A stretch of DNA of 58,775 nucleotides from Candidatus Aenigmatarchaeota archaeon (GTDB lineage Archaea; Aenigmatarchaeota; Aenigmatarchaeia; CG10238-14; SCSR01). The stretch is taken from the NCBI GenBank assembly GCA_018304615.1, contig JAGVVV010000011.1, forward strand, positions 1-58,775. Direction: 5' to 3'. The notes beneath the pieces were generated by a model, which saw nothing but the letters and a program-made list of their open reading frames with translations, searched no databases and was not told the origin of the DNA. The stretch's first letter is position 1. Each line of letters opens with the position of its first letter. This document shows positions 50,437 through 56,372 of this stretch, in pieces. Position numbers and translations under genes: made by a program.

Positions 50437-51735
50437 TCATTTCCTCTTTCTCTTGTATAATTCCCTGCTCATCTTCCTGAACGGGAAGTTCACAGGATTT
50501 TTTATCCCTTGATGTTGGTGAGCTTTCTGACATATATCATACAGGCCCATCTGCTTATAGAAGTTTTCATTCTCGCAGTTCGGAGGAAGAAGATTCCTCT
50601 CCTGCCTGAAATGCCATCTCAGCTGTGTCCTTATGTAATTCGTCCTTAGAGGAGGGTAATTTTTCTCGTTCCACAGCAACAATCTTTCCTCTATCTTTTC
50701 CAAACTCCATCCCATGTTCCTCAGGAAATTCACCAATATGAAAACACTTCTCTTCCTTCCGTCCTGGACGCCTTGCAGAATAAACTGGATACAAGGTGGG
50801 AAATAATCTTCTGGTATGTATTTCATCTTTCTTATTACAACAGGCTTCTCGATTTCCTTTTCTAATTCTTTCAGATTTTTCGATGCCCAGTCAAGAGCTT
50901 CAATGATAAGAGCCTCAGCCTCATGAGAAATATTCTTAGGAATAAGAAACTTCTCCTCGACTTTCACTTTCTCCGGCAGCGCATTCTCCTTTTCAAACCT
51001 GTCGATAGATTCAGCTCTGATAGGCAAACTAACCAACATCGTCTTCTCGTGCAGACTGTAAGGGAGTCTGAACAAATGTCTTGAAGAAAAGACATCCATG
51101 GAAACGACCTTGAACGGGTCGAACTTATCTTCTGACAGCACGTGTTCAACTGGTTTCTTGATTTTCTGGGCAATCTCAGCTGGCGACGCGGTGGCAAGTA
51201 TCTCCTCTCTCAGCTGGTCTTTCATATACCATTTCAGATACTGGATTACCTTCTGCAAAATCTCAGGATACTGAGCTGAAGTAGGATTCAGATTTATTTT
51301 TTCAGGAAGGGATTCGAAAGGAACTCCTATATGGAAACTGTCCCCGCCAGTGAACTTCACGCTGACCGAAGTTATCCCATGGTCCCTGAAAGCTTCAATG
51401 ATTTGTTTCGCAGTCACCTTCGCAATCTCAAAATCATCAACGTCCGGATCTATGAAAATATCCCATCCGCTCCTCATCTGATCCAAGTTCTGTTTTGTCA
51501 GTCCGACGTCCAACTGCATGGGTTGGTTCCATCTTTCTACAGAACCGTGAAAAGAAACAGTCCCCTCAGCGACTGCGTGAATGATGTCTTGTGGATACTG
51601 GAGAACGTCAGGCCTTTTTCCAAACCTTCCGTCGCGGAATACAGAAACTACTTCCCTGTTCTTGGCTACCTCGACGATAGCCCTCAAAATCGATTCCCTT
51701 GAGTAGTAATTCCACACTCTCTGAAAGTCAATCAT
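50437..51735 (-). CDS. priS: Archaeal/eukaryotic-type primase, PriS fused to PriL C-terminal-like domain
   Basis: WDIFIDPDVDDFEIAK (catalytic Asp motif), VKFTGGDSFHIG; C-terminal YFPPCIQFILQGVQDGRKRSVFILVNFLRNMG...LLPPNCENENFYKQMGLYDIC is PriL Fe-S-domain-like. Confidence 0.88.
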   Translation of the reverse strand: MIDFQRVWNYYSRESILRAIVEVAKNREVVSVFRDGRFGKRPDVLQYPQDIIHAVAEGTVSFHGSVERWNQPMQLDVGLTKQNLDQMRSGWDIFIDPDVDDFEIAKVTAKQIIEAFRDHGITSVSVKFTGGDSFHIGVPFESLPEKINLNPTSAQYPEILQKVIQYLKWYMKDQLREEILATASPAEIAQKIKKPVEHVLSEDKFDPFKVVSMDVFSSRHLFRLPYSLHEKTMLVSLPIRAESIDRFEKENALPEKVKVEEKFLIPKNISHEAEALIIEALDWASKNLKELEKEIEKPVVIRKMKYIPEDYFPPCIQFILQGVQDGRKRSVFILVNFLRNMGWSLEKIEERLLLWNEKNYPPLRTNYIRTQLRWHFRQERNLLPPNCENENFYKQMGLYDICQKAHQHQGIKNPVNFPFRKMSRELYKRKRK

Positions 51736-51919
51736 ATCCGATCATGAAGAGCAGGCGCTCCTCAAAACAATATATATTCCACAAGAATTTAAATCAAATA
51801 TTCTTTCATTCACGAAACTAATCTACTACTGAAATGAATAAAAACTAATATCATTAATAAGAATTACTGTTCAGTTGCATCATACCTATTAAAATAGTTT
51901 CTTTTCCTTTCTTGGTCAT

Positions 51920-52321
51920 ATGAAATTGAAAAAGTTAATGTTTATTTTACTAGGTTTATCCTTATTCGTCGTTCCAGTAGTAGCAATGCATAACAGTTGG
52001 TTATATTCTTTAATTGATCAAAAAACTTTTACTTGTCCTGAAGGAAATACCAAATGTTATATTGAATTATGGAAAGACGGCCATTTAGCAGGAAGAAAGT
52101 TAGTAAAACCTGGTGAATCAGTTGATGCGAAGTTTTTTGCCGGCAATCGTACTAACACCACTGAAACAAACACAACCTCTCCTGTACACAACAAAACAGA
52201 GGTTAATTGTACCTCAGTTGGAGGATCTTGTATTCCAAAAGCTTCATTATTCAGATGTAGCACAGAATATTTCAAGACAGAAGATTGCAAGTCAAGCGAG
52301 AAATGTTGTATTGTAATTTAG
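51920..52321 (+). CDS. Secreted small Cys-rich protein with sequon-rich linker
   Basis: Signal peptide MKLKKLMFILLGLSLFVVPVVA; NRTNTTETNTTSPVHNKTEVNCTS; C-X6-C-X8-C-X9-C-X5-CC. Confidence 0.75.
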   Translation: MKLKKLMFILLGLSLFVVPVVAMHNSWLYSLIDQKTFTCPEGNTKCYIELWKDGHLAGRKLVKPGESVDAKFFAGNRTNTTETNTTSPVHNKTEVNCTSVGGSCIPKASLFRCSTEYFKTEDCKSSEKCCIVI

Positions 52322-52325
52322 GGTT

Positions 52326-53282
52326 CTAAGAGAAGTCAGTGAGCAGTTTTTGCTGCCTGTGAGTGAGAGTCGAAGCCTGAATCTTCAACCTTCTTCTGAT
52401 TTCTTTCGCCAGAACATTCTCATACCCATGCACGCAGTAGACTCTTTTGGGATTCACAGCTTCCACGAATTCCATCAGTTCTCTGAAATCCGCGTGATCC
52501 GACAGCGCGAATCCCTGGCATCCGTAATCTCTAGATACTGCCCAGCCTGTAAGGACGCAGTTGACAAAATCGCTCTTCGTCTGAGGAATCACATGCATGG
52601 GCTTTATGAAAACCTCCCCATCTTCATCCTTTTCAAGAAAGTCCAGCTTGATCCCGAATTTCCTGTAAGATTCAGAGAATTTTCTGACCATGTCCGAAAC
52701 CTGAGGAACTATCTTCGCGTCGTTCAAGATTTTAATTGCCTCCTGAGCTTTTCCCAGCGAATAGGCTCCGACATTAATCTTCTTGTTCTTCTTCAACTGC
52801 TCCTCTACCCATTTGACGAATTCTCTCCTCACAATCTCTGAATCAGGGATCTGGTAAGCTGGATATCCATATGTCGCTTCAGTGATGAGAACATCTGCAT
52901 GCTGGATGTCAATTTTCTTGCAAGTGAGATTCTCCCTTACCTTGAAATCCCCGGTGTAAAGTATAGATTTGCCATCAGCTTCTATCACAGTCTGGGTAGA
53001 TCCGAGGATGTGGCCAGCGCTGATCAGTTTCACTGAGAATCCATCGAACTTCATTGATTTTCCTTCTTTCATGACGTGAGAATGGAAAGAAGGGTTCCTG
53101 ATGTTCGCAAACTCGGCAGTCTCCTCTGTGCAGTACGGTTTTTTAATTATCTCTTCAGGACAATGGTCTGAATGGGCATGAGAAACAATCGAGGTGAAAT
53201 CGGAAAAATTTGGATCGAGCAGAATCGTCTGGTTCTTGTATTTGACTGCGATTCCATTTCCATGAGAAACAGTAAAACTCAT
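52326..53282 (-). CDS. Metallo-beta-lactamase-fold exonuclease
   Basis: SHAHSDHCPEE; SAGHILGSTQTVIE; LYTGDFKVRE; ALSDHADFRELMEFV. Confidence 0.9.
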   Translation of the reverse strand: MSFTVSHGNGIAVKYKNQTILLDPNFSDFTSIVSHAHSDHCPEEIIKKPYCTEETAEFANIRNPSFHSHVMKEGKSMKFDGFSVKLISAGHILGSTQTVIEADGKSILYTGDFKVRENLTCKKIDIQHADVLITEATYGYPAYQIPDSEIVRREFVKWVEEQLKKNKKINVGAYSLGKAQEAIKILNDAKIVPQVSDMVRKFSESYRKFGIKLDFLEKDEDGEVFIKPMHVIPQTKSDFVNCVLTGWAVSRDYGCQGFALSDHADFRELMEFVEAVNPKRVYCVHGYENVLAKEIRRRLKIQASTLTHRQQKLLTDFS

Positions 53283-54043: not shown

Positions 54044-54303
54044 GCTTTCTCTTTTTTCTTTACTTCTTTCTTCAGCTTCAGCATCTTGAATGAATAACTA
54101 CATTTATTGCATTTGATGTTGAACTTCTGTTTAGTCCCTTCGCCTTCAACAAAAGGACTGGTCCAGTTCTCTTTCCTCTTCTCAGAAGATCCGCATTCAG
54201 GACAAGTCAATTCCATCATCGCTTGTGAATCTTCTTTCATCTTTGCAATTCTGATTTTCCCGTTGTTTTCCAAATCCCTTGTTGTTATATATTCAAGTGG
54301 CAT
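54040..54303 (-). CDS. Zinc-ribbon protein
   Basis: LTCPECGSSEKRKENWTSPFVEGEGTKQKFNIKCNKCSYSF. Confidence 0.8.
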   Translation of the reverse strand: MPLEYITTRDLENNGKIRIAKMKEDSQAMMELTCPECGSSEKRKENWTSPFVEGEGTKQKFNIKCNKCSYSFKMLKLKKEVKKKEKA

Positions 54304-55291
54304 TTACACCAATTCCGTATAATCTACAAATTTCTTTCAAGACTTTTAATATATTACTTTGATAAGCTGAAAAATCATCATCTGATAAATTTGGAATCGC
54401 AACTACTCTATCAGGAATTAACTTTGAATCTTCTTTGGAAATCTGCCAAAGATGGGTATTGGTTCTTTGAATTCCATTTTTGTTGATGGAACTTATCAGA
54501 TATACTGTGTCATTTGCTGGAATCCATAAATCAAATATGGCGCGACCATATCTACGATATTCTTCCGATCTAGGATTTTTTATATATCCAAGTTTTTTTA
54601 CTGCTTCAACGAATTTCTCAACTCCGACATCCAGAATAATAGGACTAATTTTCTTAAATAAGATTTCATTTATATCTTGATAAAACGATTGGACTGCTTT
54701 ACTCCTAATTCTGTAAATGTGATGGTAATGCCATTTCATAGTCTTTGAGCGTTTCATAATGATCTCTTTTTCTGTCTCGCCTGTCACTAGTCTCATCGGC
54801 CTACTCACCTCTTCGTGAATCTCAGATGGCAAGATATTGGGAATTTTAGGAACTTCAACCGCTTCCATCTTTGGCATTAGATTTTCATCAGGAACAATCG
54901 AGTATGATAAATGTTGTTTGAGTACATCCCTCCTGGTCGAAGATACAAGTTGCCCTTCAGATATCATCATTAAAAAATTCCAAAATCCACTATCTTCCCC
55001 TTTGACTGATTCAAGTACGCTATCTCCTTCAGCGCTTATTTCATACATTTCCTTTCCATATTCAACTTCAGAAGATGGTACCCTCATAATACAACCTCTT
55101 AAATTTAGTCTGCCTAAACTAGCTGTGATATCGGTGAATTTCATTTTGACGATGAACAACTGATTTACAAAATATTCAATATAGCTGACCTGTAGTGGTT
55201 TCCTTTTCAATAGGCCTAAAACCACTCTGTCCAAAGTATATAGTGATCCAGATGGTGTTGTGCTCTGCATAGAATTAAGCTTACACTTCAA
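54293..55291 (-). CDS. Hypothetical protein
   Basis: 332-aa ORF (start may be MQSTTPSG near 55270); no recognised motif. Confidence 0.65.
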   Translation of the reverse strand: MKCKLNSMQSTTPSGSLYTLDRVVLGLLKRKPLQVSYIEYFVNQLFIVKMKFTDITASLGRLNLRGCIMRVPSSEVEYGKEMYEISAEGDSVLESVKGEDSGFWNFLMMISEGQLVSSTRRDVLKQHLSYSIVPDENLMPKMEAVEVPKIPNILPSEIHEEVSRPMRLVTGETEKEIIMKRSKTMKWHYHHIYRIRSKAVQSFYQDINEILFKKISPIILDVGVEKFVEAVKKLGYIKNPRSEEYRRYGRAIFDLWIPANDTVYLISSINKNGIQRTNTHLWQISKEDSKLIPDRVVAIPNLSDDDFSAYQSNILKVLKEICRLYGIGVNAT

Positions 55292-55295
55292 TTAT

Positions 55296-56372
55296 TTAAA
55301 TCGATCTCTTTTGGTCTTGATTTATTGTATCCCATTTGTATTTTATTAAATTATATGCTTTTTCTGGTTCTTTTTTAATTAATCCTAATTTTTCTAGTTT
55401 ATTTAAATGATCAATAACTGTCGACCAATCTTTATGTAACACTTCCTTAATTCCATCTGAATATTGGAAACCACCTTTTACTAGCTGTAAAACAGCATAT
55501 AACGTCCTACTTTTCATTTTCATTATCAATTTCAATTTTTTATCTGGATGAGTAAATCCTATAATTTCATAGAATTTCAGAACATTGGCAAATGTCTTGA
55601 CTCTATCAAACATGCCTAAAGTAAGTGTATGTTGGATATGTTTGTGACTTTCGTATTTTCGTGGTGCTTTTCTGATTCTCGAATAAATATCAAATTTACT
55701 TTTAAGAAGTAATTGAACATCTTTGAGTAAATTAAGATTTGGTGTTGTTATTTCTGGATTACAAACAAGGGTGCCGTCAGTGTCAAAAAGTCCTCTGACA
55801 AAACATGCTACAAAATCATTGGGTAACGAGAACAACAAAGTAGGAACGCGAGCATTTACAGATTTCCCTTTTCTACCAAAGAATGATTCTAAAACTATTA
55901 AAACAGGTTTGGGTATGATATAATCTATTGATCTATTTGGCTCTTTTTTAATTTCTACATTAAAATGATTTTTAACTGTGGAATTAACTTGCTCAACTAA
56001 TTTCTCATTTATATTATAAAATCTACAAACATTAATCGTGTTGCCATCACCAACTAAAAATCCATATAACCAACATAATTCGGGTGTTAGCTGGATATTA
56101 AAAGTACTTTCAATACATTTAGAACACCCTGCTCGTAATTTAATTTTTTTTAATATTTGTTCTAATACTAATTTACTGTCGTCTGACATTACTGTATATG
56201 CTTGATTCAACCTTTTTGTTTGGATTGATAATCGTGAAATCGGCAATTTTATTTTTTCATTAGAAAGAAGATTTTGTAGTTCTTTCTTCTGTCCTTTTGA
56301 TAAAAATAATGCTGTTGATGAATCTTTTAAATCAAGAATACTAATTTTCATGTTATCTCTATCTTTTTTCAA
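55296..56372 (-). mobile_element. LAGLIDADG homing endonuclease, free-standing, C-terminal wHTH-like region
   Basis: LCWLYGFLVGDGNT and ACFVRGLFDTDGTL motifs. Confidence 0.88.

What the first reader, a model, noticed from the sequence alone, without database searches (positions are those of the whole stretch)
51920..52321. Secreted protein with beta-defensin-like cysteine spacing and sequon-rich linker
Signal peptide, a linker with five N-X-S/T sequons (NRT, NTT, NTT, NKT, NCT), then C-X6-C-X8-C-X9-C-X5-CC, close to the beta-defensin spacing C-X6-C-X4-C-X9-C-X6-CC. In an otherwise housekeeping window this could be a host-interaction or antimicrobial effector.
Basis: partly seen in the sequence, partly recalled or inferred. 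Interest (0 to 1): 0.65.

Follow-up and report, generated by a model that had tools for sequence, protein, structure and literature searches.

The report
Beta-defensin-fold domain in DPANN archaea
A small exported protein of a tiny-genome archaeon ends in a six-cysteine module that belongs to a family spread through DPANN archaea and is predicted to share the fold of animal beta-defensins, a fold the literature I could search describes as animal-only.

Summary
The ORF is real: 133 aa, Sec signal peptide, a small N-terminal C..C domain, a sequon-rich linker and a C-terminal C-x6-C-x8-C-x9-C-x5-CC domain. The cysteines are conserved. The same module occurs in two other proteins of this genome, elsewhere in its class, in 32 of 281 sampled Woese-/Pacearchaeota-class genomes, and rarely in CPR bacteria. 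In 67 collected copies all six cysteines line up (consensus C-x3-GG-x-C-[KR]-x2-C-x2-G-E...C...CC). Several copies exceed the Pfam Defensin_beta cut-off and one exceeds the tick carboxypeptidase inhibitor cut-off. A profile of the family matches only trans-defensin-fold peptides in the PDB (23 of 23 hits). AlphaFold gives a three-stranded sheet (pLDDT 92 for a canonical copy, 75 for the window copy), and Foldseek matches are dominated by beta-defensins and relatives. Best reading: an extracellular disulfide-locked binding or inhibitor module at the archaeal cell surface. Common ancestry with animal beta-defensins, disulfide pairing and function are not shown.

The parts
51887..51896 (+). TATA-box-like TATTAAAATA 24-33 nt before the ATG (suggests a leaderless archaeal transcript)
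   Evidence: read from sequence; inference only
51920..52321 (+). whole gene, 133 aa exported protein
   Evidence: no NCBIfam model
51920..51985 (+). Sec-type signal peptide MKLKKLMFILLGLSLFVVPVVA (aa 1-22)
   Evidence: read from sequence: K-rich start, hydrophobic core, V-V-A before the likely cut; not run through a predictor
51986..52144 (+). N-terminal domain aa 23-75 with C39 and C46; shared with an exported protein of another genus (G029:C55, L002) that carries a different C-terminal domain
52145..52207 (+). N/T-rich linker aa 76-96 with five N-X-S/T sequons; the genome encodes an STT3/AglB oligosaccharyltransferase
52208..52309 (+). six-cysteine trans-defensin-like domain aa 97-130
52310..52321 (+). 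C-terminal tail IVI and stop, directly after the CC

Best explanation
The gene encodes an exported, probably N-glycosylated protein of an archaeon with a small genome. It displays a C-terminal six-cysteine domain of the trans-defensin (beta-defensin) fold on a glycosylated linker behind a small N-terminal domain. The domain is one member of a mobile module family that DPANN archaea attach to pilin-like membrane proteins, to large cysteine-rich surface proteins and to short exported proteins. Most likely it works as a disulfide-locked, protease-resistant binding or inhibitor head in the extracellular space, where variable loops on a fixed core recognise a partner such as another cell's surface, an enzyme or a glycan. 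It probably does not lyse membranes. Shown by computation: the ORF, family conservation, a defensin-type sequence profile and the predicted fold. Inferred: secretion, glycosylation, disulfide formation and pairing, and binding as the function.
For: Same module in two other proteins of the own genome (864 aa on C10 with three canonical copies; 121 aa on C17) and in G041, G045 and G092. 32/281 genomes in a Woese-/Pacearchaeota class at E<=1e-4 versus 3/233 in a CPR class. 67 copies with six aligned Cys. Leave-one-out: the window domain scores 22.5 bits and 0 of 1000 Cys-fixed shuffles reach it. Pfam: several copies above the PF00711 cut-off, one above Inhibitor_I68, 28/67 hit Defensin_beta_2 at E<0.1, 0/10 Cys-fixed shuffles hit any model, 0/14 control genomes match PF00711. 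Family profile against the PDB: 23/23 hits are trans-defensin-fold, best E 4e-4; a Cys-fixed shuffled control gives only 4 hits, best E 0.28. AF2 and Foldseek: window copy matches only tick carboxypeptidase inhibitor, platypus DLP-1 and crotamine; canonical copy pLDDT 92, best hits CpoBD13 (prob 0.99, TM 0.71) and hBD-2 (0.97). STT3 in the genome. Charge neutral to acidic. Tandem pilin-like arrays.
Against: No Foldseek hit is below E=0.001 (37-40 residues are too short for strong statistics). The window copy itself is below every Pfam cut-off and its model is only medium confidence (pLDDT 75, pTM 0.44). Its C2-C3 loop (x8) is outside the animal range. Pilin-like N-termini were judged by eye and no Pfam pilin model hit. 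No direct functional evidence.
Confidence: 0.6

Rival explanations
1. Antimicrobial effector: the domain is released and kills or inhibits competing or host cells, as animal beta-defensins do.
For: Beta-defensin fold and consensus; small exported protein; tandem, fast-diverging paralogue arrays in related archaea.
Against: Net charge about 0 here, median -2 and maximum +2 across 67 copies; the domain is covalently attached to other domains or membrane anchors, and no cleavage site for release was seen.
Confidence: 0.12
2. Enzyme inhibitor: the domain blocks an extracellular hydrolase (for example a metallocarboxypeptidase), like the beta-defensin-fold tick carboxypeptidase inhibitor or the amylase inhibitor helianthamide.
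For: Best Foldseek hit of the window copy is tick carboxypeptidase inhibitor (prob 0.93, TM 0.66). A related copy (41% identical to the window domain, L117) exceeds the Inhibitor_I68 cut-off. The chain ends in a short hydrophobic tail right after CC.
Against: The window copy itself does not hit Inhibitor_I68; the tick inhibitor has two domains and a longer tail; no target enzyme is known.
Confidence: 0.18
3. Purely structural disulfide cap: the domain stabilises surface proteins or pili in a harsh outside world and has no partner, and the defensin resemblance is convergence on a simple fold.
For: Wide use in many architectures; low sequence conservation outside Cys, GG and E; small disulfide folds evolve convergently (discussed in PMC12284004).
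Against: Non-Cys positions (GG, K/R, E) match animal beta-defensins well beyond the Cys framework alone. Convergence is not excluded.
Confidence: 0.25
4. A different six-cysteine fold (knottin, cis-defensin/CS-alpha-beta, WAP) or chance cysteines.
For: Model of the window copy is only pLDDT 75; C2-x3-C3 in relatives resembles the CxxxC of cis-defensins.
Against: No CxC at the end and no helix of 4 or more residues in either model; all 23 PDB profile hits with the 67-copy profile are trans-defensin-fold; only 3 plant cis-defensins appear with the smaller profile, E 0.19-0.29; cysteines aligned throughout.
Confidence: 0.08

Closest known systems
Vertebrate beta-defensins (Pfam PF00711, PF13841)
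   Same: Six Cys ending in CC, C-x6-C, GG before Cys2, K/R after Cys2, E after Cys3, predicted three-stranded antiparallel sheet; some archaeal copies pass the Pfam cut-off
   Different: Archaeal, not cationic, fused to linkers, pilin-like membrane segments or multidomain surface proteins; window copy has an x8 second loop and is below the Pfam cut-offs
Tick carboxypeptidase inhibitor (Inhibitor_I68, PF10468)
   Same: Beta-defensin fold; best structural match of the window copy; one sister copy passes the Pfam cut-off
   Different: Two domains in tick; no inhibitor activity known here
Big defensins of invertebrates (PF14862)
   Same: [quoted passage not shown] 3/67 copies weakly hit the Pfam model
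   Different: The N-terminal domain here has no detectable similarity to theirs; no significant Pfam hit for it
Bacterial defensins (actifensin, xanthusin; cis-defensins)
   Same: Small exported disulfide-rich prokaryotic peptides
   Different: CS-alpha-beta fold with a helix and CxC; described as cis-defensins (PMC11561630)

Membership tests
trans-/beta-defensin fold | six cysteines, last two adjacent (CC), C1-x6-C2, G before C2 | tested here: met
   window copy and 67-row alignment
trans-/beta-defensin fold | typical spacing x3-5 / x9-13 / x4-7 in the other loops | tested here: inconclusive
   met by most relatives (45/67 have x3 in the second loop); window copy has x8 there
trans-/beta-defensin fold | three antiparallel beta-strands | tested here: met
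   AF2 strands 9-13, 22-25, 34-38 in the window copy; 9-11, 18-20, 32-36 at pLDDT 92 in the canonical copy; Foldseek; predicted, not solved
trans-/beta-defensin fold | disulfide pairing 1-5, 2-4, 3-6 | not testable with these tools
   no coordinates or mass-spectrometry data available
Pfam PF00711 / PF13841 (beta-defensin) | score above curated cut-off | tested here: not met
   window copy has no hit; relatives do pass: 24.9, 22.2 and 26.8 bits vs 21, 4/281 genomes
beta-defensin (antimicrobial peptide) | cationic | tested here: not met
   net charge about 0 here; family median -2, maximum +2
beta-defensin (antimicrobial peptide) | antimicrobial activity | not testable with these tools
   needs refolded peptide
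Inhibitor_I68 (tick carboxypeptidase inhibitor) | score above curated cut-off | tested here: not met
   window copy no hit; sister copy in L117 26.2-28.2 bits vs 25
cis-defensin / CS-alpha-beta | helix with CxxxC and terminal CxC | tested here: not met
   terminal CC; no helix of 4 or more residues in either model

The most novel reading that the evidence does not exclude
DPANN archaea carry true homologues of the trans-defensin superfamily, diversified in tandem pilin-like arrays and surface proteins as recognition or inhibitor heads at the contact with host cells. The beta-defensin fold would then predate animals or have been exchanged between archaea and animals.
Probability: 0.3. Interest if true: 0.88.

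Novelty: new variant of a known kind. Interest (0 to 1): 0.7.

Why it matters
[quoted passage not shown] A conserved archaeal domain family with trans-defensin sequence and predicted fold would contradict that statement, make the origin of beta-defensins testable, and give a concrete handle on the almost unknown surface proteins with which DPANN archaea touch other cells. Its non-cationic nature would also show the scaffold serving something other than membrane killing.

Tried and rejected
Three-finger toxin matches of the N-terminal domain (PDB phmmer E 0.07-0.25) were treated as chance: only C39/C46 and about 25 residues align. First profile searches with 3 rows gave mostly partial, stop-containing chance hits. 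Family PF13841 alone is noisy (8 of 14 control genomes ring at E<=1), so PF00711 and the archaeal profile were used instead. Most bacterial hits of the genome contigs pattern scan were out of frame or fell in improbable frames. Viral contigs: three pattern hits, none with the domain in an ORF; BFVD fold search empty of meaningful matches. NCBIfam gave nothing for the window ORF. The whole genome was not available as a file. Literature searches for archaeal defensins found nothing relevant.

Full report
What is there. The ORF at 51920-52321 (+) is 133 aa. By reading: signal peptide aa 1-22, domain aa 23-75 with C39 and C46, N/T-rich linker aa 76-96 with five sequons, and a C-terminal six-cysteine domain aa 97-130 ending IVI. 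It lies alone between two minus-strand housekeeping genes: a primase with both PriS- and PriL-type Pfam matches (50437-51735) and an RNA-processing beta-lactamase-type nuclease (52326-53282). The stretch is AT-richer (31-37% GC) than its neighbours (about 44%).

Homologues. The whole protein has one clear relative, in another genus of the order (G029, E 1.6e-10). It shares the signal-N-domain-linker part but ends in an unrelated C-terminal domain; no further convincing member of the N-domain was found in 156 genomes. So the protein is modular. The C-terminal module has many relatives: in the same genome an 864-aa protein with three canonical copies (C10) just downstream of a gene with a pilin-like N-terminus, and a 121-aa T-rich protein (C17); in the class, G041 (1107 aa, two copies), G045 and G092. 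A degenerate DNA pattern scanned over GTDB genomes gave 51 hits. Those in long, sensible frames with the full motif were from Woesearchaeota, Pacearchaeota, Nanoarchaeota and Nanoarchaeia, plus one CPR bacterium (Roizmanbacteria). A profile search found 32/281 genomes of the Woese-/Pacearchaeota class at E<=1e-4 and 3/233 of the CPR class. A non-DPANN archaeal control could not be run with the archaeal profile.

The family. 67 copies align with all six cysteines: C1-x6-C2 in 61, x3 in the second loop in 45, x9-12 in most third loops, x4-6 before CC in 60. Most copies were picked with a six-Cys pattern, so the invariance is partly by selection; the leave-one-out and shuffle tests are the independent evidence. 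Consensus: C-x3-G-G-x-C-[K/R]-x2-C-x2-G-E-x(5-9)-C-x(4-6)-CC. The window copy is divergent (x8 second loop, no GE), yet a model built without it scores it at 22.5 bits and none of 1000 Cys-fixed shuffles reaches that (maximum 19.0). Carriers are (i) 85-125 aa proteins with a membrane segment near the N-terminus that looks like a type IV pilin signal, often two or three in tandem (L117, L136, L189, L194, L197, L198); (ii) about 600-aa proteins with several Cys domains, at least one with a C-terminal membrane segment (L148); (iii) large multidomain proteins; (iv) short exported proteins like ours. The pilin assignment is by eye; Pfam did not confirm it.

Link to beta-defensins. Single copies exceed the curated Pfam Defensin_beta cut-off of 21 bits (24.9, 22.2, 26.8), and another copy exceeds Inhibitor_I68, the tick carboxypeptidase inhibitor (26.2 vs 25). 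In the same 281 genomes PF00711 is exceeded in 4, with 0/14 control genomes. Ten Cys-fixed shuffles of two of these copies hit no Pfam model. The 67-copy profile against all PDB sequences returns 23 entries up to E=10, every one a trans-defensin-fold peptide (beta-defensins, CpoBD13, helianthamide, tick inhibitor, DLP-1, big defensins), best E 4e-4. A control profile from Cys-fixed shuffles of 45 copies returns only four, again trans-defensin-fold, best E 0.28. Thus the cysteine spacing alone points to this fold and the other residues add to it. AlphaFold: canonical Woesearchaeota copy pLDDT 92, three strands, PDB matches led by crocodile CpoBD13 (prob 0.99, TM 0.71) and human beta-defensin 2 (0.97); window copy pLDDT 75, three strands, whose only PDB matches are tick carboxypeptidase inhibitor (prob 0.93), platypus DLP-1 and crotamine, all beta-defensin folds (from general knowledge). 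Foldseek E-values are weak, as expected for 40 residues.

What it does. The domain is not cationic and is tethered, so a membrane-lytic peptide is unlikely. A glycosylated linker is plausible: five sequons, and an STT3/AglB homologue in the genome. The most likely role is an extracellular binding or inhibitor head. The tick-inhibitor similarity makes enzyme inhibition a serious rival. These are inferences; no partner is known.

Known or new. PMC7203481 states trans-defensins evolved exclusively in animals; PMC11561630 reports only cis-defensins from bacteria. I found no paper on archaeal defensins, within an open-access library only. I therefore call it a new variant of a known kind: a known fold in a new domain of life, with different chemistry and architecture. 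Homology versus convergence is open; PMC12284004 discusses why this is hard for such small peptides.

Noticed in passing
window 50437-51735 (-): A 432-aa protein with Pfam matches to both the small and the large DNA primase subunit: apparently a fused PriS-PriL primase.
   Followed up: partly
G000:C10:88200-92500 (L211): An 864-aa exported protein with three canonical defensin-like copies plus several other repeated Cys motifs, preceded on the same strand by a cysteine-rich protein with a pilin-like N-terminus (MSLEMIIGLLILLVVAF...).
   Followed up: partly
L117, L136, L189, L194, L197, L198: Tandem arrays of two or three small pilin-like genes, each with one or two divergent six-Cys domains: looks like a diversifying surface locus of Woesearchaeota and relatives.
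   Followed up: partly
L148, L176, L177 and similar: A recurrent family of about 600-aa proteins in the Woese-/Pacearchaeota class with two or three Cys domains; in L148 behind an N-terminal region with a weak squalene-cyclase-like hit and before a C-terminal membrane segment.
   Followed up: no
window 55296-56372 and 54293-55291 (-): Neighbouring ORFs, the first with LAGLIDADG-endonuclease-like motifs (GFLVGDGN, GLFDTDGT); possibly a homing endonuclease or intein-derived gene.
   Followed up: no
L002 (G029:C55): Relative with the same N-terminal C..C domain but a T-rich linker and an unrelated 120-aa C-terminal domain: domain swapping behind a common exported N-domain.
   Followed up: partly
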